DNA of 64,000 bases, from assembly GCA_031277315.1 (NCBI GenBank), contig JAITMP010000038.1, forward strand, positions 44,088 through 108,087, in the 5' to 3' direction. The notes beneath the pieces were generated by a model. It did not search any database. It was not told the origin of the DNA and worked only from the letters and a program-made list of their open reading frames with translations. Shown piece by piece: positions 28,492 to 41,975 of this stretch. Source of the DNA: Zoogloeaceae bacterium (lineage in GTDB: Bacteria > Pseudomonadota > Gammaproteobacteria > Burkholderiales > Rhodocyclaceae). The position numbers and the translations under genes are program-made. Every line of letters starts with the position of its first letter. The first letter of the stretch is position 1.

Positions 28492-31254
28492 TTGTTTAGT
28501 GGGCGAGAGGAGAGTGTCATACAAAACGATTTACCAAACTATTTTCACTATTGGGGCAAGGCCAAACCCGAATCTAAGGAGCCTTACCATCTCTTGGTTT
28601 TCCACGCGCTTGATGTCGCGGCGTGTGGTCGACTGCTCGTACGCTTGCCGCAATTTTCATTGCGGCACTTGGCCGGCGAACTGGGCTGGACTGACGAGCA
28701 AGTGGAAAATTTATTCGTCTTTTTCTTGGCCCTTCATGACCTGGGAAAGTTTGCCAGGGCATTCCAAGGTCTGGTGAAAGATATTTCTCCGGATCTTGTC
28801 AGGCCGGTGGCCGGTAAAATCTATAACCGGCGTCACGACACATTGGGCTGGCTATGCTGGCGAGAGTGGGCGGCAGATATTCTCTCGACAGTGCTGCCTC
28901 GTGCGGGCGACGAGTGCTGGGCTGTATGGATGCGCAGTGCCACCGGCCATCACGGCCAGCCGCCCGAGGAAGTCGCTGGCGGCGGCCTGACTGATCTGAT
29001 CGCGAATGATTATTTCGTGCCCGAAGACTGCCAAGCGGTAGGCGATTACATGGTTGAACTTGCCAATTGGCTGTCTCTCCATGCAATGCCGGCACCAACG
29101 AGGGCGACCACGAAAATCCTGCGGCGCTACTCTTGGAGATTGGCTGGATTGGCTGTCTTGGCCGATTGGCTGGGCTCAAATCAGACGTTTTTCCCCTATC
29201 GCTCCCGCCCTACAAGCGATCTGCAAACCTACTGGCGTGAGTACGCGCTGCCTCAAGCGGAAGCAGCTTTGAGTGTGGCTGGATTACAGCCGCGGAAGCC
29301 GCGCCATTGGAGCAACCCTCTCGCCCTGTTCGATCACTTGCGTGAACCAACACCGTTACAGCACTACGCAAATGAAGTGACGCTGCAAGCCGGGCCGCAG
29401 GTGTTCTTGCTGGAGGACGTGACCGGCGCTGGTAAAACAGAAGCCGCGTTGATTCTGACGCAGCGCTTGATGCAGGCAGGTTTGGCGCAAGGCTTGTATT
29501 TCGCCTTGCCGAGCATGGCGACGGCCAATCAGATGTACCAGCGGATTGGGGCGGTCTATCGGCGCCTGTTTACCGAGGATTCACAGCCCTCACTGGTCCT
29601 TGCCCATGGCGCACGCGCATTGGTACAGGGTTTTCGCGACAGCATCCTGCAAACCCAGGCAGCGCCAGCGGACCACAACTACGCCGTGCAAGACGGGACG
29701 GCCACGACTCAGTGCAACGCCTGGCTGGCAGACAACCAGAAAAAAGCCTTTCTGGCCGATGTTGGCGTCGGAACGCTGGATCAGGCGTTGTTGGCGGTCA
29801 TGCCGGTGCGTTTCCAATCGCTGCGTTTGCTTGGTTTGGCTGACAAGATTCTTCTGGTCGACGAGGTGCACGGATACGATCCCTACATGCTGACCCTGCT
29901 CAAACGCCTGCTCACCGCGCATGCACGGCAAGGCGGCAGCGCCATCCTGCTCTCGGCGACGTTGCCGTTATCGACTCGGCAGGAATTGCTGTCTGCTTTT
30001 CGCTTGGGCTTGGGAAAAGACGAACTCGAGTCGCTGCCGGATCAGCGTTATCCCTTGGCGATCCATGCCGGCCAGGAGGTGATGACACATGCGTGCGCGA
30101 CTCGTCCTCTGGTGAAGCGTCGCGTCGAGGTGCGCGGGCTGCACCGCGAAGATGAAGTGCATGCGTTGCTGATCGAGCAGGCGAGATCTGGACATTGCGT
30201 CTGTTGGATACGCAATACCGTAGAAGATGCTCGCCGTGCCTATGCAGCCTTGGCGGAACAGTTGGGTCCCGAATGTTCGACGCTTTTTCACAGCCGCTAT
30301 GCAATGGGGCACCGCTTGGACATCGAAGCGCGGGTGCTACGAGATTTCGGCAAGCATTCCACCTCAGCCGCACGTCATGGAAAAGTGCTTATCGGAACGC
30401 AGGTTTTGCAGGAAAGCCTGGATTTCTGCGTTGATGTGATGGTCAGCGATCTGGCGCCCATCGAGTTGCTGATTCAACGCGCCGGCCGTTTGCAACGCCA
30501 TGCACGCGAGCGTAATGGTGACCCAGCTGCCGACGGCATTGAGCATCGCGCGCCTCCCGTACTGTATGTGTTGATGCCTGAAATGACGGACGCGCCAGCG
30601 GACGATTGGTACTCCAGCCTGTTCCCCAAGGCCTGCTACGTCTATCCGGATGCCGGAAAACTCTGGCTTGGCGCGCGTGCCTTGCTTGCCGCGGGTTGTC
30701 TGGTCAGCCCTGGCGAAAGCGCACAGCCTGGCGCCGTGCGGGAATTGGTGGAGGCAGCCTATGGACAAGCCGCCGAGCAGATTCCCGACGCCCTCCAGCG
30801 AGCCACGCAAAAGCAGCTGGGCAAAGACCTGGCCATGCAGAGCCAAGGTGCGTTCAATGCCTTGAACCTCGACAAAGGCTACTGCATCGAAAGCAGCGGC
30901 CGTTGGTACGAAGACGGTTGCGTGCCAACTCGTCTGGGAGATGAAACTGTCACGCTGTATTTGGCGCGCAAGGTGGCTGGGGAGTTGCGGCCATTGTGTG
31001 ATGACGAACATCATTCCTGGGAGTTGTCGGCGGTGCGCGTTCGAGATGGCATTGCCGAAGCCTTGGCACCTCAGTGGCGGCAGCGTTTCGCTTCCACCAT
31101 CCAAAACTTGCGCAGCCGTTATCGCTTATTGGAAGAGCCGGCCTTCATCGTGCCGCTGGTGGAAGCAGACGGAGGCTTGAAGGCTTATGTAATAGATGCG
31201 AGCGGGCGGGAACGAGAGATGCTCTACAACATCCAGGACGGGCTGACGTGGTGA
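28492..31254 (+). CDS. cas3: CRISPR-associated helicase/nuclease Cas3 (type I-E, HD-helicase fusion)
   Basis: A 920-aa protein recruited by target-bound Cascade to nick and processively degrade foreign DNA. The N-terminal HD nuclease shows LHDLGKFARAF (about residue 82) and ATGHHG. The SF2 helicase has Walker A GAGKTEA (about 311), DEVH box (LVDEVHGYD, about 457), and motif III LLSATLP. The C-terminal domain is present, so length is near that of E. coli Cas3. The conserved sequence begins close to 28510; the first available start is a TTG at 28492, so the start is uncertain. It is separated from the Cascade operon by 412 bases, which implies independent transcription. Confidence 0.96.
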   Translation: MFSGREESVIQNDLPNYFHYWGKAKPESKEPYHLLVFHALDVAACGRLLVRLPQFSLRHLAGELGWTDEQVENLFVFFLALHDLGKFARAFQGLVKDISPDLVRPVAGKIYNRRHDTLGWLCWREWAADILSTVLPRAGDECWAVWMRSATGHHGQPPEEVAGGGLTDLIANDYFVPEDCQAVGDYMVELANWLSLHAMPAPTRATTKILRRYSWRLAGLAVLADWLGSNQTFFPYRSRPTSDLQTYWREYALPQAEAALSVAGLQPRKPRHWSNPLALFDHLREPTPLQHYANEVTLQAGPQVFLLEDVTGAGKTEAALILTQRLMQAGLAQGLYFALPSMATANQMYQRIGAVYRRLFTEDSQPSLVLAHGARALVQGFRDSILQTQAAPADHNYAVQDGTATTQCNAWLADNQKKAFLADVGVGTLDQALLAVMPVRFQSLRLLGLADKILLVDEVHGYDPYMLTLLKRLLTAHARQGGSAILLSATLPLSTRQELLSAFRLGLGKDELESLPDQRYPLAIHAGQEVMTHACATRPLVKRRVEVRGLHREDEVHALLIEQARSGHCVCWIRNTVEDARRAYAALAEQLGPECSTLFHSRYAMGHRLDIEARVLRDFGKHSTSAARHGKVLIGTQVLQESLDFCVDVMVSDLAPIELLIQRAGRLQRHARERNGDPAADGIEHRAPPVLYVLMPEMTDAPADDWYSSLFPKACYVYPDAGKLWLGARALLAAGCLVSPGESAQPGAVRELVEAAYGQAAEQIPDALQRATQKQLGKDLAMQSQGAFNALNLDKGYCIESSGRWYEDGCVPTRLGDETVTLYLARKVAGELRPLCDDEHHSWELSAVRVRDGIAEALAPQWRQRFASTIQNLRSRYRLLEEPAFIVPLVEADGGLKAYVIDASGREREMLYNIQDGLTW

Positions 31255-31267
31255 TTGCCAGAGACGG

Positions 31268-31298
31268 CTGGGCGCCGGGTTGATGGCCCGGCGCCCAG
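31268..31298. terminator. 12-bp perfect hairpin between cas3 and the crRNA-like element
   Basis: CTGGGCGCCGGG at 31268-31279 pairs exactly with CCCGGCGCCCAG at 31287-31298 around a 7-base loop. It begins 14 bases after the cas3 stop. On the minus strand it also lies directly after the second degenerate repeat, so it could end both the cas3 transcript and the minus-strand RNA. No T run follows on either strand. Confidence 0.55.
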
Positions 31299-31299
31299 A

Positions 31300-31328
31300 G
31301 TCTGAATCCCCGCTTGGGCGGGGAACGT
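31300..31328 (-). repeat. Degenerate CRISPR repeat (downstream copy on the minus strand)
   Basis: Read on the minus strand, it matches the main-array repeat at 21 of 29 positions. Positions 2-23 match at 20 of 22, keeping CGTTCCCCGC and the stem partner GCGGGGAT. The last six bases, which would become the 5' handle of a next crRNA, are almost all changed (TCAGAC in place of GAACCG). This is expected if only the 3' hairpin of a single crRNA is under selection. Confidence 0.85.
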
Positions 31329-31367
31329 CTAGTGACATAGGCTTGCAACAAGCCGCATACGGTTCAT
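31308..31367 (-). ncRNA. crRNA-like regulatory RNA (CreR/CreA-like), predicted Cas6e product
   Basis: A degenerate repeat-spacer-repeat on the minus strand. Cas6e cleavage at the normal site in both repeats would release a 60-base RNA. It would have the 5' handle ATGAACCG (31367-31360), identical to the main array, then a 31-32-base spacer (31359-31328), then the 3' hairpin CCCCGCCCAAGCGGGG. The first 14 spacer bases, TATGCGGCTTGTTG, match the plus-strand sequence at 31412-31425 at 12 of 14 positions with AAG (the E. coli type I-E PAM) directly before it. Known CreR RNAs and CreA antitoxin RNAs use this kind of partial seed match to guide Cascade as a repressor rather than for cleavage. Function here is inferred. 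Confidence 0.8.
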
Positions 31368-31388
31368 CCCCGTCTGAACGGGGATGGA
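31360..31388 (-). repeat. Degenerate CRISPR repeat (upstream copy on the minus strand)
   Basis: On the minus strand it matches the main repeat at 21 of 29 positions. The last 13 bases (17-29), CGGGGATGAACCG, are perfect and include the whole 5' handle and the Cas6e cut site. The 5' part is degraded except for the CCCCG needed to close the hairpin. The pattern is the mirror image of the other degenerate copy. Confidence 0.87.
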
Positions 31389-31392
31389 TTGA

Positions 31393-31401
31393 ACTATAGC
31401 A
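31393..31401 (-). promoter_or_regulatory. Extended -10 promoter for the minus-strand crRNA-like RNA
   Basis: The minus strand reads TGCTATAGT, a close match to the extended -10 TGnTATAAT. A start about seven bases downstream (near 31386) would place the RNA 5' end at the beginning of the first degenerate repeat. No -35 hexamer is evident. An extended -10 (TGGTAGAAT) is also found in the main array leader. Confidence 0.5.
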
Positions 31402-31408
31402 AAAAATC

Positions 31409-31442
31409 AAGTATGTTGCTTGTTGAACTAAGATAATACAAT
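31409..31442 (+). promoter_or_regulatory. Cascade-operon promoter region overlapping the crRNA-like RNA target (AAG PAM)
   Basis: AAG at 31409-31411 is followed by TATGTTGCTTGTTG, which differs from the RNA spacer start only at positions 5 and 6; position 6 is a base that type I-E guides do not pair. The same stretch contains the best promoter-like elements before the operon (TTGCTT at 31416-31421 and TACAAT at 31437-31442, 15-base spacing). Cascade binding a ~32-base footprint from 31412 would cover both. The exact start point is not known. Confidence 0.6.
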
Positions 31443-31469
31443 CTTACGAGAGCGTTAAAGGGATTTGTC

Positions 31470-31670
31470 ATGAATAAAAAATGGGCGTATGCACTGATTT
31501 GGCGGCATCCTGCTTTGGGATTTGTCATCCTGATTGCGGCCGGTATCGGGTGGCTCATACATGAAGAAATGGGTATTCGTTTCAGTTTGGAAATTGTGCC
31601 GCTCACCTCGAAAGTCGCAACAACTTCGGCAACGGAAAGAGGCATAAAGACAGAAAGGGATGCTCCATGA
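31470..31670 (+). CDS. 66-aa single-pass membrane protein, first gene of the Cascade operon
   Basis: ATG at 31470 with AAAGGGA seven bases upstream. The sequence starts MNKKWAYALIWRHPALG, has one hydrophobic helix (about residues 15-32, ALGFVILIAAGIGWLI), and a polar C-terminus rich in Thr, Ser, Glu and Arg. The stop overlaps the cas8e ATG as ATGA, so the two are translationally coupled. I recognise no family. It lies directly downstream of the crRNA-like RNA target. It could be a small toxin of the CreT type, a membrane accessory of the CRISPR system, or simply a leader ORF that times Cascade translation. Start and reading frame are well supported; function is not. Confidence 0.7.
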   Translation: MNKKWAYALIWRHPALGFVILIAAGIGWLIHEEMGIRFSLEIVPLTSKVATTSATERGIKTERDAP

Positions 31671-33220
31671 AGGACCTGCTTGCCGAGTGCTGGATGACAG
31701 GGGTTGGCACACACGGCCTGACTCCATTTAGCCCATTGATGATGGGCTCCCCAAATTTGCTCGACATTCACGCCTGCCGCCCGGACTTTCGGGGTGCGCT
31801 CTTCCAGTTCCTGATCGGCTTGCTGCAAACGGCCTATGCGCCGGAGGATCAGGACGAATGGCGAGAGCGTCTGGCGGCGCCGCCAGACGCCAAGACGCTG
31901 GAACAGGTCTTCAACCCCTACCGGCACGCCTTTCTTCTGGAAAACGACGGTCCTGCTTTTCTGCAAGACCTGTCATTACCCGTCGACGTTAACCAACTCC
32001 CGGTACACGAACTGTTGATCGACGCGGGTTCCGACAGCAATCTCCATTTCAACAAACAGTCCGCCACGCCAGGCATGTGCGATGCTTGTTTTGCCCAAGC
32101 ACTGCTGACTTTGCAGTTGAACGCGCCCTCCGGCGGGCGGGGCATCCGTACTTCGTTGCGTGGCGGCGGGCCATTGACGGTCTTATTGCTACCGGCTCAG
32201 GGCGACACTACGTTGTGGCAAAAACTTTGGTTGAATGTTCTTCCATGGGATGCGCTGACTTATCCACCCGTTAAGTCTGCGGGCGATGTCTTGCCGTGGC
32301 TGGCTCCAACTCGTACCAGCGACGGCAAGAACGCGGCCGACACGCCGCCAGAAGCTGTGCACCCCTTGCAGACCTATTGGGGAATGCCCAGGCGCATCCG
32401 CCGCGATGACAGTACGTTAGGACACGGCGATTGCGCTGTATGTGGCGCAGCCGGCGTGCGCTTGACCCATCATTACCGTACCCGTCACGGTGGCACCAAT
32501 TACACAGGAGCTTGGAAACACCCGTTGACACCCTACAGCCTGGATCCTAAGGGCGAAAAACCGCCGCTGCCGATCAAGGGACGTTATGCTCAAAGCGGTT
32601 ATCGGAATTGGCTGGGCTTGGTGTTGGGCAAAGACGATCATCAGCCCGATGCGGCTCAAGTGGTTAGCCATTACACAATGAAGATTCGTCAGCCACGTAC
32701 CCGGCTGTGGTGTTTTGGCTACGACATGTCAAATATGAAAGCCGAATGCTGGTATGACAGCACATTGCCTGTGCACTCTGTACCGATCGACCAACAATCC
32801 ATATTCGTGCGTACCACCAAAGAGCTGCTGGACGTGGCCGATGAAACGGCCAAAGCTCTGCGTACTCACGTCAAGGCGGCTTGGTTCAAACGCCCGGGTG
32901 ATGTCAAGGAAGAACCAGCCATCGCGCAGAGCTTTTGGCAGGAATCGGAAATCGCCTTCTATTATTGGTTGGAACGCCTTTCTACGTCTGACGTCGCCGA
33001 TCCTTCCGCGCGAGCAGAAATCTATCGAGGTTGGCTGCTGGCAACGCACCGGCTGGCGCTATCGTTGTTTGAACGCTGGGCCATGAGTGCGCCCATCGAG
33101 GATATGAATCTGGAACGTGTGGTAAAAGCCAGATCCGGCTTGGTCAAGCAGTTGAATCACGGCAAGGCAACCAAGCCACTGTGGAAGTTCGTCAATGAGT
33201 ACGATAAGGAACACACATGA
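31667..33220 (+). CDS. cas8e: Cascade large subunit Cas8e (Cse1/CasA)
   Basis: A 517-aa subunit that reads the PAM and helps recruit Cas3. The N-terminal FSPLMMGSPNLLDIHACRPDFRGA region, the zinc-type CxxC (GMCDACF at about 138; later CAVCGAAG), and the C-terminal four-helix bundle (ending WKFVNEYDKEHT) agree with Cse1. Length is close to E. coli CasA (502). It overlaps the small membrane-protein stop and the cse2 start by four bases each. Confidence 0.95.
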   Translation: MKDLLAECWMTGVGTHGLTPFSPLMMGSPNLLDIHACRPDFRGALFQFLIGLLQTAYAPEDQDEWRERLAAPPDAKTLEQVFNPYRHAFLLENDGPAFLQDLSLPVDVNQLPVHELLIDAGSDSNLHFNKQSATPGMCDACFAQALLTLQLNAPSGGRGIRTSLRGGGPLTVLLLPAQGDTTLWQKLWLNVLPWDALTYPPVKSAGDVLPWLAPTRTSDGKNAADTPPEAVHPLQTYWGMPRRIRRDDSTLGHGDCAVCGAAGVRLTHHYRTRHGGTNYTGAWKHPLTPYSLDPKGEKPPLPIKGRYAQSGYRNWLGLVLGKDDHQPDAAQVVSHYTMKIRQPRTRLWCFGYDMSNMKAECWYDSTLPVHSVPIDQQSIFVRTTKELLDVADETAKALRTHVKAAWFKRPGDVKEEPAIAQSFWQESEIAFYYWLERLSTSDVADPSARAEIYRGWLLATHRLALSLFERWAMSAPIEDMNLERVVKARSGLVKQLNHGKATKPLWKFVNEYDKEHT

Positions 33221-33855
33221 CTCCGAGAAAACCCATATTGAACAGCAAGCAGCATGATGCTGTACGTGACTGGTGGCGATCACTGCAACCGATCGAGAAA
33301 AATGCCAAGCCCCCGCCGGATTGGCTGCTAGGCTTGGGGCGCGCCGACCGGGCACATTTACGCCGCTGTGCATGTCTTGACGAGTTGCTTTCCCAGCGGG
33401 CGGCTTTGCTACTGGCCAAAATGTTGATTGCGCGAAATGGCGATCTCTGGGTTTTGCCCGACAACGAAACTACCTACAGGCGTCTGGCTTGGGTGGCCGG
33501 CGTACTGGCAATGGTGAAAGAGGATTTGCGTGACGGCTGCACTCTGACTTGGCATTTGGGGCGCTCAGCCGATGCTGATCGCCCAGTGATGAACGAGCAA
33601 CGCTTTCAGCGCCTTGAGCGTACCCGCGATATCGACGACCTGTTTATCCAGTGGCGGCGCGCAGTCCGGTTGGCCGACGGTAAAGCGGATGTTGCCCAAC
33701 TGGCCGATGATCTTCTGACTTGGCAGATAGAGCTGGACGCTCCCTCTCAACGCCCCAATGCAGTGAGATTTCATTGGGCGTATGACTATTACCTGACGAC
33801 CCGCGATCAAGCCACCGCCGACAAACCCTCAACTGACAAGGAATCCGACCAATGA
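33217..33855 (+). CDS. cse2: Cascade small subunit Cse2 (CasB)
   Basis: A 212-aa all-helical subunit present as a dimer along the Cascade belly, stabilising the R-loop. Features are VRDWWRSLQPIEKNAKPPPD near the N-terminus, LGRADRAHLRRC, and RFQRLERTRDIDDLFIQWRR in the middle, all typical of Cse2. The ATG overlaps the cas8e stop and its own stop overlaps cas7e. Confidence 0.94.
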   Translation: MTPRKPILNSKQHDAVRDWWRSLQPIEKNAKPPPDWLLGLGRADRAHLRRCACLDELLSQRAALLLAKMLIARNGDLWVLPDNETTYRRLAWVAGVLAMVKEDLRDGCTLTWHLGRSADADRPVMNEQRFQRLERTRDIDDLFIQWRRAVRLADGKADVAQLADDLLTWQIELDAPSQRPNAVRFHWAYDYYLTTRDQATADKPSTDKESDQ

Positions 33856-34886
33856 CCCGTTTCATTCAACTGCATTTGCTGACGTCATATCCCCCCTCCA
33901 ATCTCAACAGGGACGACTTGGGTAATCCCAAAACCGCCACCATGGGTGGTGTACCACGGCTGCGTATTTCCTCGCAGAGCCTCAAGCGAGCCTGGCGCAC
34001 GTCAGAATTGTTCCAGCAGCTTCTGGTCGGCAACATTGGCACACGCACCAAGCGTTTAGGAGTTGAAGCCTTCGAGGCGCTGACCCAGGCAGGTGTTAGC
34101 GAAAAAAAGGCAACTGAATGGGCCTCCGAGATTGCCAAGGTCTATGGAAAATTAAAAGCGGATAAACCACTTGAAATTGAACAATTGGTGCATATCGCTC
34201 CGGAAGAACGCGCTTCGCTGGATGCGCTGCTGACGACTCTGGCGCAAGAAAAACGCGCCCCAACGGAAGTGGATCTTGATGCTCTGCTGCATGAACAGCA
34301 CGCGGTCGATATCGCCATGTTCGGGCGCATGCTGGCGTCGAAAGTTCAGCACAACTCGGAGGCGGCAGTGCAGGTCGCGCACGCCATTGGCGTGCATGCT
34401 TCGGCCATTGAAGATGACTATTTCACCGCCGTGGACGATTTGAACGAGACCAGTCCTGAAGCCGCACATATCGGTGAAAGAGGCTTTGCGGCCGCGGTGT
34501 TCTATCTTTACCTGTGCATCGACCGCGATTTGTTGAAAAAAAATCTCGGAGGCGATGAGGGAAAAGTCAATAAAGCGCTGCGTGCATTGACCGAAGCCGC
34601 GTTGATGATTGGCCCCAGCGGTATGCAAAACAGCTTCGCCAGCCGTGCTTACGCGCACTATGCGCTAGCCGAAAAGGGCAGTCAGCAGCCTAGATCCTTG
34701 TCGCTGGCGTATGTCAAACCTGTCACCGGACACGATTACGCTGCCCAGGCAACTCAATCGCTGCAACAACTGCGCGATAACCTGGATAAGGTCTATGGTG
34801 CATGCGCTGATGAACGTTACGAGTTGAATGCACTCGACGGTGAGGGAAATCTTAAAACATTAAACGATTTCATTGCCGCGGAGTGA
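33852..34886 (+). CDS. cas7: Cascade backbone subunit Cas7e (Cse4/CasC)
   Basis: A 344-aa RNA-recognition-fold protein that forms the six-copy crRNA-binding backbone. It begins FIQLHLLTSYPPSNLNRDDLG with the conserved PKTATMGGVPRLRISSQSLKRAWR, followed by a helical thumb (about 60-170) and SGMQNSFASRAYAHYALAEKG near the end. All expected family segments are intact. It overlaps cse2 and precedes cas5e by three bases. Confidence 0.96.
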   Translation: MTRFIQLHLLTSYPPSNLNRDDLGNPKTATMGGVPRLRISSQSLKRAWRTSELFQQLLVGNIGTRTKRLGVEAFEALTQAGVSEKKATEWASEIAKVYGKLKADKPLEIEQLVHIAPEERASLDALLTTLAQEKRAPTEVDLDALLHEQHAVDIAMFGRMLASKVQHNSEAAVQVAHAIGVHASAIEDDYFTAVDDLNETSPEAAHIGERGFAAAVFYLYLCIDRDLLKKNLGGDEGKVNKALRALTEAALMIGPSGMQNSFASRAYAHYALAEKGSQQPRSLSLAYVKPVTGHDYAAQATQSLQQLRDNLDKVYGACADERYELNALDGEGNLKTLNDFIAAE

Positions 34887-34889
34887 GTC

Positions 34890-35621
34890 ATGAATGACTA
34901 CTTACTGTTGCGCCTTTATGGCTCATTGGCCAGTTGGGGCGAGATCGCGGTCGGTGAAATGCGACATTCGGCGGCGCACCCTTCGCGTTCAGCTTTGCTG
35001 GGTTTACTTGGCGCCGCGCTGGGTATCGAGCGTAGCGATGACGCGGGGCAACAAGGATTGGCGCAAGGCTATCGCTTTGGCATCAAACTGGAGCAGGCCG
35101 GAATGCCATTGCGCGACTATCACACCGTGCAGGTAGGAACAGCTCCGAGAAAGTTCAGCTTTCGCAGCCGGCGTCAGGAATTGGCGGCGGAGAAAGTGGA
35201 AACGATGCTGTCGGCGCGTGAATATCGTTGCGACAGCATCGCGTTGATTGCCGTGGAAGCTCTGCCTCAAGCGCCTTGTGATTTGGAACGATTGGCTGCC
35301 GCACTACGTCAACCGCGCTTTTTGCTGTATCTGGGCCGTAAATCGTGTCCTCTTGCGCTGCCATTGGCGCCGCATTGTGTACAGGCTTCCAGTTTGCGCG
35401 AAGCATTTGATCGCGCCCCGCCACCTCACGACTGGTTGAAGCGGGTGTTTCAATACGGCGCATCCGCGCGCCAAGTACGTTATTACTGGGAAGAAGGTAT
35501 GGAAGCGGGAATGCAGGCCAGCTTTGATAGTTGGCGCCACGATCAGCCATTGTCACGCCGCCGCTGGCAGTTTGCGCCGCGCCGGGAGTCGGTGGCTCTG
35601 GAAGAAGGAGGGACGCGATGA
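34890..35621 (+). CDS. cas5: Cascade subunit Cas5e (CasD)
   Basis: A 243-aa subunit capping the backbone and binding the crRNA 5' handle. It starts YLLLRLYGSLASWGEIAVGE, followed by RHSAAHPSRSALLGLLGAALGI, both hallmarks of Cas5e. DYHTVQVG and the C-terminal FAPRRESVALEEGGTR are also present. The stop overlaps the cas6e ATG. Confidence 0.95.
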   Translation: MNDYLLLRLYGSLASWGEIAVGEMRHSAAHPSRSALLGLLGAALGIERSDDAGQQGLAQGYRFGIKLEQAGMPLRDYHTVQVGTAPRKFSFRSRRQELAAEKVETMLSAREYRCDSIALIAVEALPQAPCDLERLAAALRQPRFLLYLGRKSCPLALPLAPHCVQASSLREAFDRAPPPHDWLKRVFQYGASARQVRYYWEEGMEAGMQASFDSWRHDQPLSRRRWQFAPRRESVALEEGGTR

Positions 35622-36294
35622 CGCAGCGTTATTTCTCCAAGGTGCGTTTGCTGGTGCGGCCAAGCGGAAATACGTGGCTGCGCGACTTGTTGGCGCATGG
35701 TGAATCCTACCGAGATCACGCTCTTATCTGGCGCCTGTTTCCCGGCGACGGTATGCCACGGGATTTTTTGTTTCGCCGTCTGGACGGTGAGTGGTCCTAC
35801 TTCGTGGTATCCGCGCGTTTGCCGCGGGATGATGGGCTATTTGAAGTACAGACCAAAGCTTACGAACCACGCTTGGTGAAAGGGACATTGTTGCGTTTTG
35901 ATTTGCGCGCCAATCCCGCTGTCAGCAAGAATGAGTCTGGACGTTCTCAGCGTCATGATGTGTTGATGGAAGCAAAACATAGGCTGTCAATTGCTGAAAC
36001 TTCAAATGCGATGAGTAACACGCTGAGTGAGACGCAGGGAAAAGCAGGACGCGAATGGCTGTTGGCGCGTGCTGGAAAATGGGGGCTGAAGGTTTCTGCT
36101 GATAGCTTGTTGCAGGAAAGTTATCGTCAGCACAGGTTGAAACATAAAGGGCGCGCCATCGCTTACTCATCTCTTGATTATCAGGGGATAGCTCAAGTCG
36201 ATGATCCCGATCTTTTGCAACAGGCGCTATTCAATGGCATTGGACATGCGAAGGGTTTTGGTTGCGGATTGTTGCTGGTAAAAAAATTAGCCTG

Positions 36295-36295
<1 letters not shown>
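35618..36295 (+). CDS. cas6: crRNA endoribonuclease Cas6e (CasE)
   Basis: A 225-aa metal-independent ribonuclease that cuts each repeat after its hairpin and stays bound to the 3' end. The N-terminus MTQRYFSKVRLL, the segment AHGESYRDHALIWRLFP (candidate catalytic His) and the C-terminal Gly-rich loop GIGHAKGFGCGLLLV fit Cas6e. An upstream in-frame start lies inside cas5 and is not credible. Its recognition hairpin is kept in both the array repeats and the degenerate copies near 31300-31388. Confidence 0.95.
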
Positions 36296-37508
<1,213 letters not shown>

Positions 37509-37575: not shown

Positions 37576-38886
37576 GCGTTCCCCGCGCGAGCGGGGATGA
37601 ACCGATGACTCGCTGGTTCCGATCTATTTGACCCCCGCGTTCCCCGCGCGAGCGGGGATGAACCGCAGCAGCGCCCGGCCGGTTTTACTACATCGCGGCG
37701 TTCCCCGCGCGAGCGGGGATGAACCGCCGGCTCACCCCGTCGCGTCCGCGCAGGCCCGGCGTTCCCCGCGCGAGCGGGGATGAACCGTACATTGACATGT
37801 CGGCATCATGCGACTGGAAGCGTTCCCCGCGCGAGCGGGGATGAACCGGATGAGCCCGATACCCGTGCCGAGTTTCTTCGGCGTTCCCCGCGCGAGCGGG
37901 GATGAACCGTCGCCAAGTTCCAAAAGCCCCGCGTTTGACAGGCGTTCCCCGCGCGAGCGGGGATGAACCGGAAATTGGCTTCAGTTCCCATTGCGTTGCA
38001 CCGCGTTCCCCGCGCGAGCGGGGATGAACCGTTGTAGATACCGTTCCGGCCATAGATTTTTCCGCGTTCCCCGCGCGAGCGGGGATGAACCGTCGTAGCG
38101 CGCGGCGCGGCCCAGTTCCGGGTGGCGTTCCCCGCGCGAGCGGGGATGAACCGGCGTTCGTCGAGGCGCTGGCCGTCGTCGTCAAGCGTTCCCCGCGCGA
38201 GCGGGGATGAACCGCGCACTTGAGTTTTTACCCGCACGGCGACGCAGCGTTCCCCGCGCGAGCGGGGATGAACCGTATGGGGTGATCGGCCATTCATACG
38301 GCGGCAGGCGTTCCCCGCGCGAGCGGGGATGAACCGGGGCAGAGCAATCCTCTCTCCTGTTTTTTGCTGCGTTCCCCGCGCGAGCGGGGATGAACCGGGA
38401 GGATTGCCATGTCTGACTTGCTTGCCGAGGCGTTCCCCGCGCGAGCGGGGATGAACCGCTGTTGCACTGCGTGACCGCTTGGCTGGAGAGGCGTTCCCCG
38501 CGCGAGCGGGGATGAACCGCGTTCGGGCAGTGGTCAGCGCCGCCGCACTCCGCGTTCCCCGCGCGAGCGGGGATGAACCGTTTGTTCTGCGGTTATATGC
38601 TTGTGGTTGCGAGCGTTCCCCGCGCGAGCGGGGATGAACCGGATCAGCGCGAACAGATCACGCCGCCATTTGTCGCGTTCCCCGCGCGAGCGGGGATGAA
38701 CCGACTCCTCACGATATTCATCGCAGAGCGCGACGGCGTTCCCCGCGCGAGCGGGGATGAACCGGGGGAGCGTAATGCCAAAACGGACAGGGGGGGGCGT
38801 TCCCCGCGCGAGCGGGGATGAACCGGGACTGCCCTCCGCCATTACCGGCGCGTCATGGCGTTCCCCGCGCGAGCGGGGATGAACCG
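37576..38886 (+). CRISPR. Type I-E CRISPR array, 22 repeats and 21 spacers
   Basis: A 29-base repeat beginning GCGTTCCCCGCGCGAGCGGG and ending GATGAACCG recurs every 61 bases from 37576. All 22 copies appear identical, including the last at 38858. Twenty spacers are 32 bases and one (38642-38674) is 33. The repeat forms a CCCCGC-GCGGGG hairpin and ends in the I-E handle ATGAACCG. Identical distal repeats suggest a young or recently truncated array. Spacer origins cannot be determined from the window. Confidence 0.99.
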
Positions 38887-40215: not shown

Positions 40216-41112
40216 ATGCACATCGGATTCATCGGCCTTGGCCTCATGGGGCGGCCCATGGCCATCAATGTCGCGCGCGGCGGCCATGTCTTGCATGTGT
40301 GGGCGCGCCGCGCTGCCGCGCTGGAACCTTTCTCTCCGGCTTCCGGTTTGGACGTTTGCGTCCATGCCAGTCCGGCGGAGCTGGCCCGGCATGCCGACAT
40401 CATCATCACGATGGTTGCCGACGCGCCGGATGTCGAGGCGGTGCTGCTGGGCGAGAACGGCGTCGCCGCGGCGGCGAAGCCGGGCCTGCTGGCGGTTGAC
40501 ATGAGCACCATCGCGCCGGCGGCGGCGCGGCGCATCGGCGCGAGGCTGGCGGAGCGGGACATTGATTTTCTCGACGCGCCGGTTTCCGGCGGCGAAGTGG
40601 GCGCCATCAACGCCACCTTGTCGATCATGGCCGGCGGCGGGCGGGCGGCTTTCGAGAAAATGCAGCCGGTCTTCGCGTTGATGGGCAGGAACATCGTGCA
40701 CGTCGGCGAGATCGGCGCGGGGCAGGTGGCGAAGGCGTGCAACCAGATTGTCACCGGCATGGGCGTGGCGGCGCTGGCGGAAGCCTTCAACTTTGCCCGC
40801 AAGAGCGGCGCTGACCTGGCTCGCGTGCGCGAGGCGCTGCTGGGCGGCTTCGCTTCCAGCAAGATTCTCGAAAACCACGGTCAGCGCATGATCGCGCGCG
40901 ACTTCAAACCCGGCTTCAAGGCCTGGATGCACCAGAAGGATTTGCGCATCGTCATGGAGGAGGCGCACCGCCTCGGCCTGATGCTGCCGGGCGCGGCGGC
41001 GACGGCGCAGATGTTCAACGCCGTGGTCGGCTCGGGGCTGGGCGAGAACGATTCGATTGTCCTGCTGAAGCTGCTGGAGCGCATGTCCGGCGGTGAAGCG
41101 GAGGACGCATGA
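40216..41112 (+). CDS. NAD(P)-dependent beta-hydroxyacid dehydrogenase (GarR/3-hydroxyisobutyrate dehydrogenase family), copy 1
   Basis: A 298-aa enzyme. The N-terminal Rossmann motif is GFIGLGLMGRPMA, the substrate loop is LDAPVSGGEVGA, and the catalytic Lys lies in GAGQVAKACNQI. The C-terminal helical domain has KAWMHQKDLRIV. This fits tartronate-semialdehyde reductase or 3-hydroxyisobutyrate dehydrogenase; the substrate cannot be fixed from the sequence. Start at 40216 has GGGAGACGCGGA before it. The stop overlaps the next gene, its paralogue. Confidence 0.88.
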   Translation: MHIGFIGLGLMGRPMAINVARGGHVLHVWARRAAALEPFSPASGLDVCVHASPAELARHADIIITMVADAPDVEAVLLGENGVAAAAKPGLLAVDMSTIAPAAARRIGARLAERDIDFLDAPVSGGEVGAINATLSIMAGGGRAAFEKMQPVFALMGRNIVHVGEIGAGQVAKACNQIVTGMGVAALAEAFNFARKSGADLARVREALLGGFASSKILENHGQRMIARDFKPGFKAWMHQKDLRIVMEEAHRLGLMLPGAAATAQMFNAVVGSGLGENDSIVLLKLLERMSGGEAEDA

Positions 41113-41975
41113 AGCTCGGCTTCATCGGTCTGGGCGTCATGGGGCGTCCGCTGGCGCGGCATCTGATCGAGGCCGGGCACGTGCTCTCCGTGTATGCGCG
41201 GCGGCCCGAGGCGGCGCAGCCGCTGGTCGCCATGGGCGCGCGCCGCTGCGCCACGCCGGCGGCGGTGGCGGCGGCGAGCGAAGCGGTATTCATGATGGTT
41301 ACTACCGGCGCCGATGCCGAGCAGGTGGCGCTGGGCAATGACGGCATCATTGACGGCGCGCCGCCCGGCGCGCTGCTGATCGACATGGGCACCATTCCGC
41401 CCGCCACGGCGCGGCGCATCGCGGCGCGGCTGGCGGCGCGCGGCATCGACGCGCTCGACGCGCCGGTTTCCGGCGGCGAAATCGGCGCCATCAACGCCAC
41501 CTTGTCGATCATGGTCGGTGGCGAGGCGGCGGCGTTCGAGCGCGCGCGGCCGCTGCTGGAAACGCTCGGCAAGACCGTCGTGCACGTCGGCCCGCACGGC
41601 GCCGGCCAGGTGGCGAAAGCTTGCAACCAGATCATCATGGTGGCGTGCATCGAGGCGGTTGCCGAGGCGATGCGGCTGGCGGAAAAATCCGGCGTCGATG
41701 CCGAAAAAGTGCGGCAGGCGCTCGCCGGCGGCTCTGCCGGCAGTCGCGTGCTCGACGTGTTCGGCGCGCGCATGACGGCGCGCGATTTCCGCGCCGGCGT
41801 CGAAGCGCGTCTGCATCACAAGGATTTCGGCATTTTGCTCGACGAGGCGGCGGCGCTCGCCGCGCCGCTGCCGATATCGGCGCAGGTCTGGCAGCAATTG
41901 AACGCCCTCATGGCGCAAGGCTGGGGCGGCGAAGACACCGCGATCCTGCTGCGCGTGCTGGAGACGGCGGCATAG
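41109..41975 (+). CDS. NAD(P)-dependent beta-hydroxyacid dehydrogenase, copy 2
   Basis: A 288-aa tandem paralogue of the preceding gene with the same motifs: GFIGLGVMGRPLA, LDAPVSGGEIGA, GAGQVAKACNQI (catalytic Lys) and LHHKDFGILLDEA. The DNA around the LDAPVSGGE segment is nearly identical between copies, while the C-terminal substrate-pocket part differs, suggesting divergence in substrate. The ATG overlaps the first copy's stop (ATGA). Confidence 0.88.
   Translation: MKLGFIGLGVMGRPLARHLIEAGHVLSVYARRPEAAQPLVAMGARRCATPAAVAAASEAVFMMVTTGADAEQVALGNDGIIDGAPPGALLIDMGTIPPATARRIAARLAARGIDALDAPVSGGEIGAINATLSIMVGGEAAAFERARPLLETLGKTVVHVGPHGAGQVAKACNQIIMVACIEAVAEAMRLAEKSGVDAEKVRQALAGGSAGSRVLDVFGARMTARDFRAGVEARLHHKDFGILLDEAAALAAPLPISAQVWQQLNALMAQGWGGEDTAILLRVLETAA

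What the first reader, a model, noticed from the sequence alone, without database searches (positions are those of the whole stretch)
31300..31425. Minus-strand crRNA-like RNA that appears to target the promoter of its own Cascade operon
Two degenerate repeats (each 21/29 to the array repeat) flank a 31-32-base spacer, read opposite to the array. Conservation follows the mature RNA exactly: the upstream copy keeps the last 13 bases with the full ATGAACCG handle, and the downstream copy keeps the hairpin half and loses its handle. The spacer begins TATGCGGCTTGTTG; the plus strand at 31412-31425 reads TATGTTGCTTGTTG with AAG, the E. coli type I-E PAM, immediately 5'. Mismatches fall at positions 5 and 6, and position 6 is not paired by I-E guides. 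Pairing then ends, as expected for a repressor guide that must avoid triggering Cas3. Established: CreR and CreA RNAs act this way in other CRISPR systems. Inferred: this locus does so, giving feedback that senses Cascade occupancy by other crRNAs or inhibition by anti-CRISPRs.
Basis: partly seen in the sequence, partly recalled or inferred. Interest (0 to 1): 0.93.

Follow-up and report, generated by a model that had tools for sequence, protein, structure and literature searches.

The report
Mini-CRISPR throttling its own Cascade genes
Between two genes of this bacterium's CRISPR immune system lies a worn two-repeat mini-CRISPR whose guide matches a site, with the correct targeting mark beside it, just upstream of those same immune genes, so it likely makes a small RNA that would let the immune complex turn down its own production.

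Summary
Observation confirmed. Two degenerate repeats (21/29 each) flank a 31-base spacer on the minus strand at 31300-31388. The spacer start matches an AAG-flanked plus-strand site at 31412-31425 except at positions 5 and 6; 4 of 20,000 shuffled seeds do as well.

Interpretation supported by comparison. Of 80 named Cas8e loci, 33 carry the same minus-strand element in the same gap with a matching target. Seed and target covary. Mismatches pile up at positions 6 and 12 (25 and 27 of 34), which Cascade does not read, against 9 of 340 cells at 1-5 and 7-11; this holds whichever positions the search ignores. AAG precedes the best match in 31 of 35 PAM-blind searches. In 17 of 24 minus-strand targets the PAM sits at one of two distances from the predicted promoter.

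It is a CreR-type autorepressor, published for types I-B, I-E and V-A: a new member of a known kind. Doubts: this copy alone has a position-5 mismatch, its promoter is unclear, and nothing was measured.

Leads: a conserved tiny membrane-peptide gene under the same control in 12 CreR loci (an unrelated 66-aa membrane ORF here), and a 19-22-nt guide class.

The parts
28492..31254 (+). cas3
   Evidence: Pfam Cas3_HD and Cas3-like_C_2
31300..31328 (-). second degenerate repeat (R2): hairpin half kept, handle lost; predicted 3' hairpin of the RNA
   Evidence: sequence; comparison over 35 elements
31329..31359 (-). 31-base spacer of the mini-CRISPR; its first 14 bases hold the seed match
31360..31388 (-). 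first degenerate repeat (R1): 6 of 6 stem pairs and the complete ATGAACCG handle
31308..31367 (-). predicted mature crRNA-like RNA, 60 nt (inferred from Cas6e cutting 8 nt before the spacer)
   Evidence: inference from repeat anatomy; fold of the longer stretch
31393..31401 (-). predicted extended -10 (TGCTATAGT) of the creR promoter, ending 4 nt before R1
   Evidence: read by eye, 17 of 34 elements have their best-scoring minus-strand -10 ending 2-7 nt before R1, but for the window itself the best-scoring site there was another one, 44 nt away
31409..31411 (+). AAG PAM
   Evidence: PAM-blind search gives AAG in 31 of 35 elements
31412..31425 (+). seed match to the spacer (12 of 14; mismatches at 5 and 6)
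31412..31442 (+). stretch that would lie under Cascade with a 31-base guide
   Evidence: inference
31389..31417 (+). candidate Cascade-operon promoter 1: TTGAAC, 17 nt, TATGTT
   Evidence: best score in the gap; below the threshold of the scan, which found none
31437..31442 (+). candidate -10 of promoter 2: TACAAT, 25 nt from the PAM edge, close to the 22 and 24 of L020 and L021
   Evidence: read by eye; distances of L020 and L021
31470..31670 (+). 66-aa ORF with one hydrophobic stretch that looks like a membrane span; its stop overlaps the cas8e start (ATGA)
   Evidence: no Pfam family; no homologue found
31667..33220 (+). cas8e (cse1)
33217..33855 (+). cas11 (cse2)
33852..34886 (+). cas7
34890..35621 (+). 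cas5
35531..36295 (+). cas6e
36262..37212 (+). cas1
37209..37508 (+). cas2
37576..38886 (+). CRISPR array, 22 repeats and 21 spacers of 32-33 bases

Best explanation
The element at 31300-31388 is a degenerate two-repeat mini-CRISPR of the CreR type that is predicted to yield a 60-nt crRNA-like RNA, which would guide Cascade, without Cas3 cutting, to the AAG-flanked site at 31409-31442 in the likely promoter of the Cascade operon and so repress it. Shown by sequence: the anatomy, the PAM and seed match, and the conservation and covariation of the same arrangement in 33 of 80 related loci. Inferred: transcription leftwards from a promoter just before R1; Cas6e cutting that gives the R1 handle and the R2 hairpin; loading into Cascade; pairing limited to about 14 bases, enough to bind but too short to license Cas3; block of RNA polymerase. 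The expected result is a feedback loop: when free Cascade is scarce, because other crRNAs occupy it or an anti-CRISPR disables it, the promoter opens and the operon, here starting with a 66-aa membrane ORF, is made again.
For: (1) Window match beyond chance: 4 of 20,000 shuffles, 0 of 902 array spacers. (2) Same minus-strand element in the same gap in 31 of 80 named loci by repeat architecture alone, 3 more by seed-first search; 33 of these 34 have a target. One search did not use the target, and 31 of its 32 elements (window included) then proved to have one; spacers swapped between loci score 3.4 on average against 12.3 observed. (3) Mismatches in 34 element-target pairs: position 6, 25; position 12, 27; positions 1-5, 2 of 170; 7-11, 7 of 170. 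With one locus per seed cluster (22 clusters): 34 of 44 at 6 and 12 against 9 of 220, P = 1e-25. The search behind this ignored positions 6 and 12, so it was rerun over all 35 elements with no position ignored (24 and 27 mismatches at 6 and 12, at most 4 at any other of the first 14) and with five other pairs ignored (23-25 and 25-27 at 6 and 12, at most 5 elsewhere). (4) PAM-blind search: AAG precedes the best seed match in 31 of 35, ATG in 1; in two of the other three an AAG site ties. (5) Related loci change spacer and target together, with no one-sided change at read positions among the eight of the largest seed cluster. (6) R1 keeps its stem (33 of 35 with at least 5 of 6 pairs; arm-swap control 58%) through 25 different 3' arms. 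(7) PAM-to-(-10) distance is 23-25 in 8 and 34-36 in 9 of the 24 minus-strand targets; 61 pairs of loci agree within 1 nt against a simulated mean of 3.8. (8) In type I-B the same 1-5 and 7-11 pairing was shown by mutation to drive Cascade repression (PMC8501985); in E. coli AAG plus 5 seed bases suffices for Cascade binding while 18-25 bp are needed for interference and priming (PMC5904413).
Against: The window copy is the only one of 34 with a position-5 mismatch; in type I-B any single change among positions 1-5 and 7-11 abolished repression. Against that, E. coli interference tolerated several single seed mismatches, including rC-dA at position 2, though rC-dA at position 1 slowed it, and pairing here runs on to position 14. 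No promoter reached the simple threshold, and the best-scoring window promoter has distance 0, outside the clusters. Seven of 24 minus-strand targets also lie outside them. L016, a close relative, has the mini-CRISPR but no target. None of the 9 loci of unnamed relatives tested by architecture has the element. An independent class-level draw gave 3 of 29 loci. No RNA or repression data.
Confidence: 0.78

Rival explanations
1. It descends from a working CreR, but in this lineage the position-5 mismatch has weakened or ended repression.
For: Position 5 matches in the other 33 element-target pairs; single seed changes abolished I-B CreA function; no near relative of this element was found (the best relative Cas8e among 199 genomes is 48% identical; the best named one 70%), so constraint in this lineage could not be measured.
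Against: Handle, both stems, AAG and 11 of 12 read positions are intact, which a long-dead element should be losing; E. coli Cascade tolerates several seed mismatch types; pairing continues to 14.
Confidence: 0.14
2. Its main job is that of a CreA-type antitoxin: it holds down the 66-aa membrane ORF, a toxin released when Cascade fails, with cas repression secondary.
For: The ORF is the first gene after the target and overlaps the cas8e start; 12 other CreR loci have a conserved tiny membrane peptide there, under purifying selection in the seven compared; CreTA and CrePA are published precedents.
Against: The close relatives L015, L018, L020 and L021 have target and creR but no room for a 36-aa ORF (targets 61-101 bases before cas8e); the 66-aa ORF has no homologue; no toxicity is known.
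Confidence: 0.12
3. A decayed stub of an ordinary CRISPR array, with a chance match nearby.
For: Repeats are degenerate.
Against: Same place and orientation in 34 of 80 loci, structured conservation, covarying targets.
Confidence: 0.03
4. The guide acts on another gene in trans.
For: Four further sites in the genome match AAG plus positions 1-11 (6 free) with one mismatch.
Against: None is perfect, one of the four has its mismatch in the PAM, and the promoter site scores as well and lies at the conserved place.
Confidence: 0.03

Closest known systems
CreR (cas-regulating RNA) of types I-B, I-E and V-A
   Same: Mini-CRISPR-encoded crRNA-like RNA with partial complementarity to the cas promoter, and autorepression that crRNA competition and anti-CRISPRs relieve (passages of reviews PMC12737573, PMC13131331, PMC12948488).
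   Different: Only sequence evidence here; a position-5 mismatch; a membrane ORF lies between target and cas8e. Whether short guides, promoter phasing and the peptide were described in the original paper could not be checked, as it is not held.
CreA of CreTA (type I-B, Haloarcula)
   Same: Two diverged repeats, 8-nt 5' handle from the first and 22-nt 3' handle from the second, pairing at 1-5 and 7-11 with 6 and 12 free, PAM inside a promoter element (PMC8501985); first repeat more diverged than the second (abstract of PMC9458426).
   Different: Target precedes cas genes, not a tRNA-sequestering RNA toxin; type I-E with AAG; one of the ten seed pairs is missing.
CrePA (CRISPR-repressed protein toxin)
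   Same: A small protein gene lies under the guide-controlled promoter.
   Different: No toxin shown; the ORF is an orphan; cas genes follow directly (CrePA as described).
Minimal type I-E variants of Streptomyces beside STAND NTPases and small membrane proteins
   Same: Small membrane proteins next to type I-E genes, proposed link to cell death or dormancy (passage of PMC12231136).
   Different: Those lack cas1, cas2 and cas3; no CreR is mentioned in the passages seen.
Ordinary type I-E CRISPR array at 37576-38886
   Same: Repeat ancestry and Cas6e-type hairpin.
   Different: Two diverged repeats, one spacer, opposite strand, self target with a PAM.

Membership tests
CreR | Mini-CRISPR: two degenerate repeats around one spacer, apart from the array, in a cas locus | tested here: met
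CreR | Limited complementarity, with PAM, to a site upstream of the cas effector operon | tested here: met
   11 of 12 read positions up to 14, AAG. That the site is the promoter is predicted only
CreR | Seed and target kept together in evolution (our criterion) | tested here: met
   family level; the window's own pair could not be followed in near relatives
CreR | RNA is made and processed by Cas6 | not testable with these tools
   stems and handle only
CreR | Cascade-dependent repression of cas, relieved by crRNA competition or anti-CRISPRs | not testable with these tools
   none
CreA of CreTA | All ten seed bases 1-5 and 7-11 pair with the target | tested here: not met
   9 of 10 in the window
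CreA of CreTA or CrePA | The repressed promoter drives a toxin | tested here: inconclusive
   66-aa ORF without homologues; toxicity not tested
Canonical CRISPR array | Near-identical repeats | tested here: not met
   21 of 29 to the array repeat each

The most novel reading that the evidence does not exclude
Type I-E CreR elements control a two-part operon: a tiny membrane peptide first, Cascade second. Failure of Cascade would release the peptide before the complex is rebuilt, so one guide RNA both tunes immunity and arms a membrane alarm or toxin. A conserved 36-47-aa family (N-x-[FL]-[SA]-P core, one span) fills the slot in 12 CreR loci, and unrelated membrane ORFs, such as the 66-aa one here, fill it in others.
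Probability: 0.25. Interest if true: 0.75.

Novelty: new member of a known kind. Interest (0 to 1): 0.58.

Why it matters
The comparison turns a single-sequence guess into a family with a clear signature of Cascade reading: variation at positions 6 and 12 and almost none at the other seed positions. That gives a simple way to find self-regulating type I-E systems, and it suggests natural guides tuned to bind without cutting, including a 19-22-nt class. In most minus-strand targets the PAM sits at the predicted -35 or about one helical turn before it, a possible design rule for Cascade repression. The membrane peptide that rides under the same control is unexplained and testable.

Tried and rejected
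Decayed array: rejected. Second target in the genome: no perfect AAG-plus-seed site. Rfam: two sub-threshold hits, taken as chance. Simple promoter scan: nothing in 31250-31700. Homologues of the 66-aa ORF: only itself among 4 candidates at E up to 0.01 (the search needs shared 5-residue words); none credible in the fetched loci (next best E 0.34). The membrane peptide elsewhere: 2 of 369 class genomes gave weak matches whose stretches hold stop codons (one has a 37-aa open frame at E 5e-5); taken as chance, not followed. Spacer self-folding: 25 long-class spacers fold somewhat better than 400 sampled array spacers (mean z -0.89 against -0.07, P = 7e-5), the 10 short ones do not (P = 0.57); in the window the hairpin covers most of the seed; meaning unknown. 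Plasmid Cas8e search: 40 records, each best place under 60% identity, not followed. L012 gave a plus-strand seed-first hit without repeat architecture; counted as chance, since wrong-PAM controls gave 0-3 of 93 loci and a downstream region 3 of 92. The independent draw used the 29 loci handed out, of 35 matching places outside the own genome. No tree was built, so relatedness is handled only by seed clusters.

Full report
What is there. The window holds a complete type I-E locus: cas3, cas8e, cas11, cas7, cas5, cas6e, cas1, cas2 and a 22-repeat array with 21 spacers. Between cas3 and cas8e, on the minus strand, lie R1 (31360-31388), a 31-base spacer (31329-31359) and R2 (31300-31328). Each repeat matches the array repeat at 21 of 29. 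R1 keeps the handle; R2 keeps the hairpin. The spacer start matches the plus strand at 31412-31425, behind AAG, except at positions 5 and 6. Shuffled seeds reach this match in 4 of 20,000 trials, and 0 of 902 array spacers do against their own gap.

A family, not a singleton. A scan of named genomes with Cas8e found 94 relatives and kept the best 80. By repeat architecture alone, 31 of the 80 carry the same minus-strand element before cas8e; 9 of 9 unnamed relatives tested do not. A search that starts from handle, seed and AAG, run on 93 loci, adds L031, L038 and L060 and does not recover L016, L018 and L081 at its threshold. In all, 34 of 80 have the element and 33 have a target; with the window there are 35 elements and 34 pairs. 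The hosts include Stutzerimonas, Halopseudomonas, Azomonas, Bordetella ansorpii, Lautropia, Methylomonas, Methylobacter, Amphritea, Oceanospirillum, Rheinheimera, Marinomonas, Endozoicomonas and others (titles). An independent draw from the class gave 3 of 29 loci (L105, L109, L120), with wrong-PAM controls at 0-2. So it is frequent near this Cas8e branch and uncommon elsewhere.

The signature of Cascade. Over 34 pairs, spacer and target differ at position 6 in 25 and at position 12 in 27, which is about what no constraint would give, but at positions 1-5 in 2 of 170 cells and at 7-11 in 7 of 170. Pairing fades after 14. With one locus per seed cluster (22 clusters) the contrast is 34 of 44 against 9 of 220, P = 1e-25. 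Searches ignored positions 6 and 12 when choosing the target, which could bias this count. One search repeats the choice over 35 elements with no position ignored: 24 and 27 mismatches at 6 and 12, at most 4 at any other position up to 14. With the pairs 5/11, 4/10, 3/9, 2/8 or 1/7 ignored instead, 6 and 12 still hold 23-25 and 25-27, other positions at most 5. The signal is not made by the scoring. A PAM-blind search puts AAG before the best match in 31 of 35; the others are ATG (L018), ties with an AAG site (L015, L068) and no target (L016). Within seed clusters, read positions change in spacer and target together; among the eight loci of the largest cluster no one-sided change was seen, while L020 has one against L021 and L048. 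In type I-B, mutation has shown that positions 1-5 and 7-11 are needed and 6 and 12 are not (PMC8501985, section read; passages).

The RNA. R1 stems have 25 different 3' arms in 35 elements, yet 25 form all six pairs and 33 at least five; swapping arms between loci gives at least five in 58% (the register was allowed to slide by two). R1 handles average 7.2 of 8 matches, R2 handles 2.7. Caveat: the detection asked for a handle-like R1 end and for a GTTCCCC-like start and stem in R2, so the R1 handle and the R2 stem are conserved partly by selection; the R1 5' arm, the R2 handle and the target were not used. The pattern fits a processed RNA with handle from R1 and hairpin from R2. Spacers fall in two classes: 25 of 31-33 bases and 10 of 19-22 bases. 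Shortened guides repress without cutting in a type I-B system (PMC10551041, passages).

The promoter. A sigma-70 scorer that does not see the target was run on the stretch from R1 to cas8e, cut at most 120 bases past the target. The PAM edge lies 23-25 bases before the best -10 in 8 and 34-36 bases in 9 of 24 minus-strand targets; the other seven lie from -23 to 15. Pairs within 1 nt number 61 against a mean of 3.8 and a maximum of 16 in simulation; related loci add to this count. In the first class the CTT overlaps or abuts the -35. Of ten plus-strand targets six lie at 44-57, two at 22-24 and two near 0. PAM plus protospacer overlaps the best promoter in 22 of 34 against 10.3 expected (19 against 12.1 with a fixed 20-base stretch). 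The window is less clear: the best score is TTGAAC-17-TATGTT at distance 0, and TACAAT at 31437-31442 lies at the distance seen in L020 and L021. Either way the site would be covered.

The doubt about this copy. Position 5 differs only in the window. In I-B such a change killed repression. In E. coli interference, tolerance depended on mismatch type, and rC-dA was tolerated at position 2 but slow at position 1 (PMC12871591, section read; it gives no position-5 verdict for rC-dA). L016 shows that a target can be lost altogether.

The gene in between. In 12 CreR loci, and in L028 without a detected CreR, an ORF after the target is a 36-47-aa peptide (length by start chosen) with one hydrophobic span and the core N-x-[FL]-[SA]-P, D for N in L028. 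Seven of these compared have pN/pS of 0.06-0.27, so it is very likely a real protein. Twenty-two database proteins match the family profile at E up to 10, some of them from the loci used. Fisher's P of 9e-6 for the link with CreR leaves out L028, which the same call showed, and ignores shared descent. The window's 66-aa ORF is unrelated by sequence and an orphan.

What is known. Reviews state that CreR RNAs mediate autorepression in types I-B, I-E and V-A through partial promoter complementarity (PMC13131331, passage), and describe the feedback (PMC12737573, passages; PMC12948488, passage). The original paper is cited by these three but is not held; I know its content from the reviews and recall only. 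A review mentions minimal type I-E variants of Streptomyces beside small membrane proteins (PMC12231136, passages). Nine library searches listed no paper whose title or opening abstract describes a CreR-controlled membrane peptide or a short-guide class of type I-E CreR; few were opened, and subscription papers are not covered.

Verdict. It is a new member of a known kind, with a caveat on its present strength and with a membrane-peptide lead that deserves a test.

Noticed in passing
L026, L027, L029, L030, L031, L032, L034, L036, L038, L039, L043, L085 (and L028), before cas8e or before hicBA-like ORFs: Conserved tiny single-span membrane peptide (N-x-[FL]-[SA]-P core) after the CreR target.
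   Followed up: partly
L026, L027, L030, L036, in part L039; also L033 and L035 without a detected CreR: ORFs that look like a HicB-HicA toxin-antitoxin pair (named from recall, no family search) lie before cas8e.
   Followed up: no
L056, L080, L083, L087 gaps: A 43-45-aa soluble-looking ORF with a shared ...KYGLKAWPI-like end sits between CreR target and cas8e.
   Followed up: no
10 of 35 elements: L015, L017, L018, L023, L024, L025, L029, L041, L060, L081: Guides of only 19-22 bases, about 12 shorter than normal, which would be two Cas7 footprints (footprint size from recall).
   Followed up: partly
window 31329-31359: The spacer folds on itself so that most of the seed is paired in the free RNA; long-class spacers fold better than array spacers on average.
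   Followed up: partly
G000 C4:60920-61114 and C39:47-241: Further array-like pieces with the same repeat end elsewhere in the genome.
   Followed up: no
window 40216-41589: Two neighbouring stretches that look like diverged duplicates (74-79% identical DNA, 884-893 bases apart).
   Followed up: no
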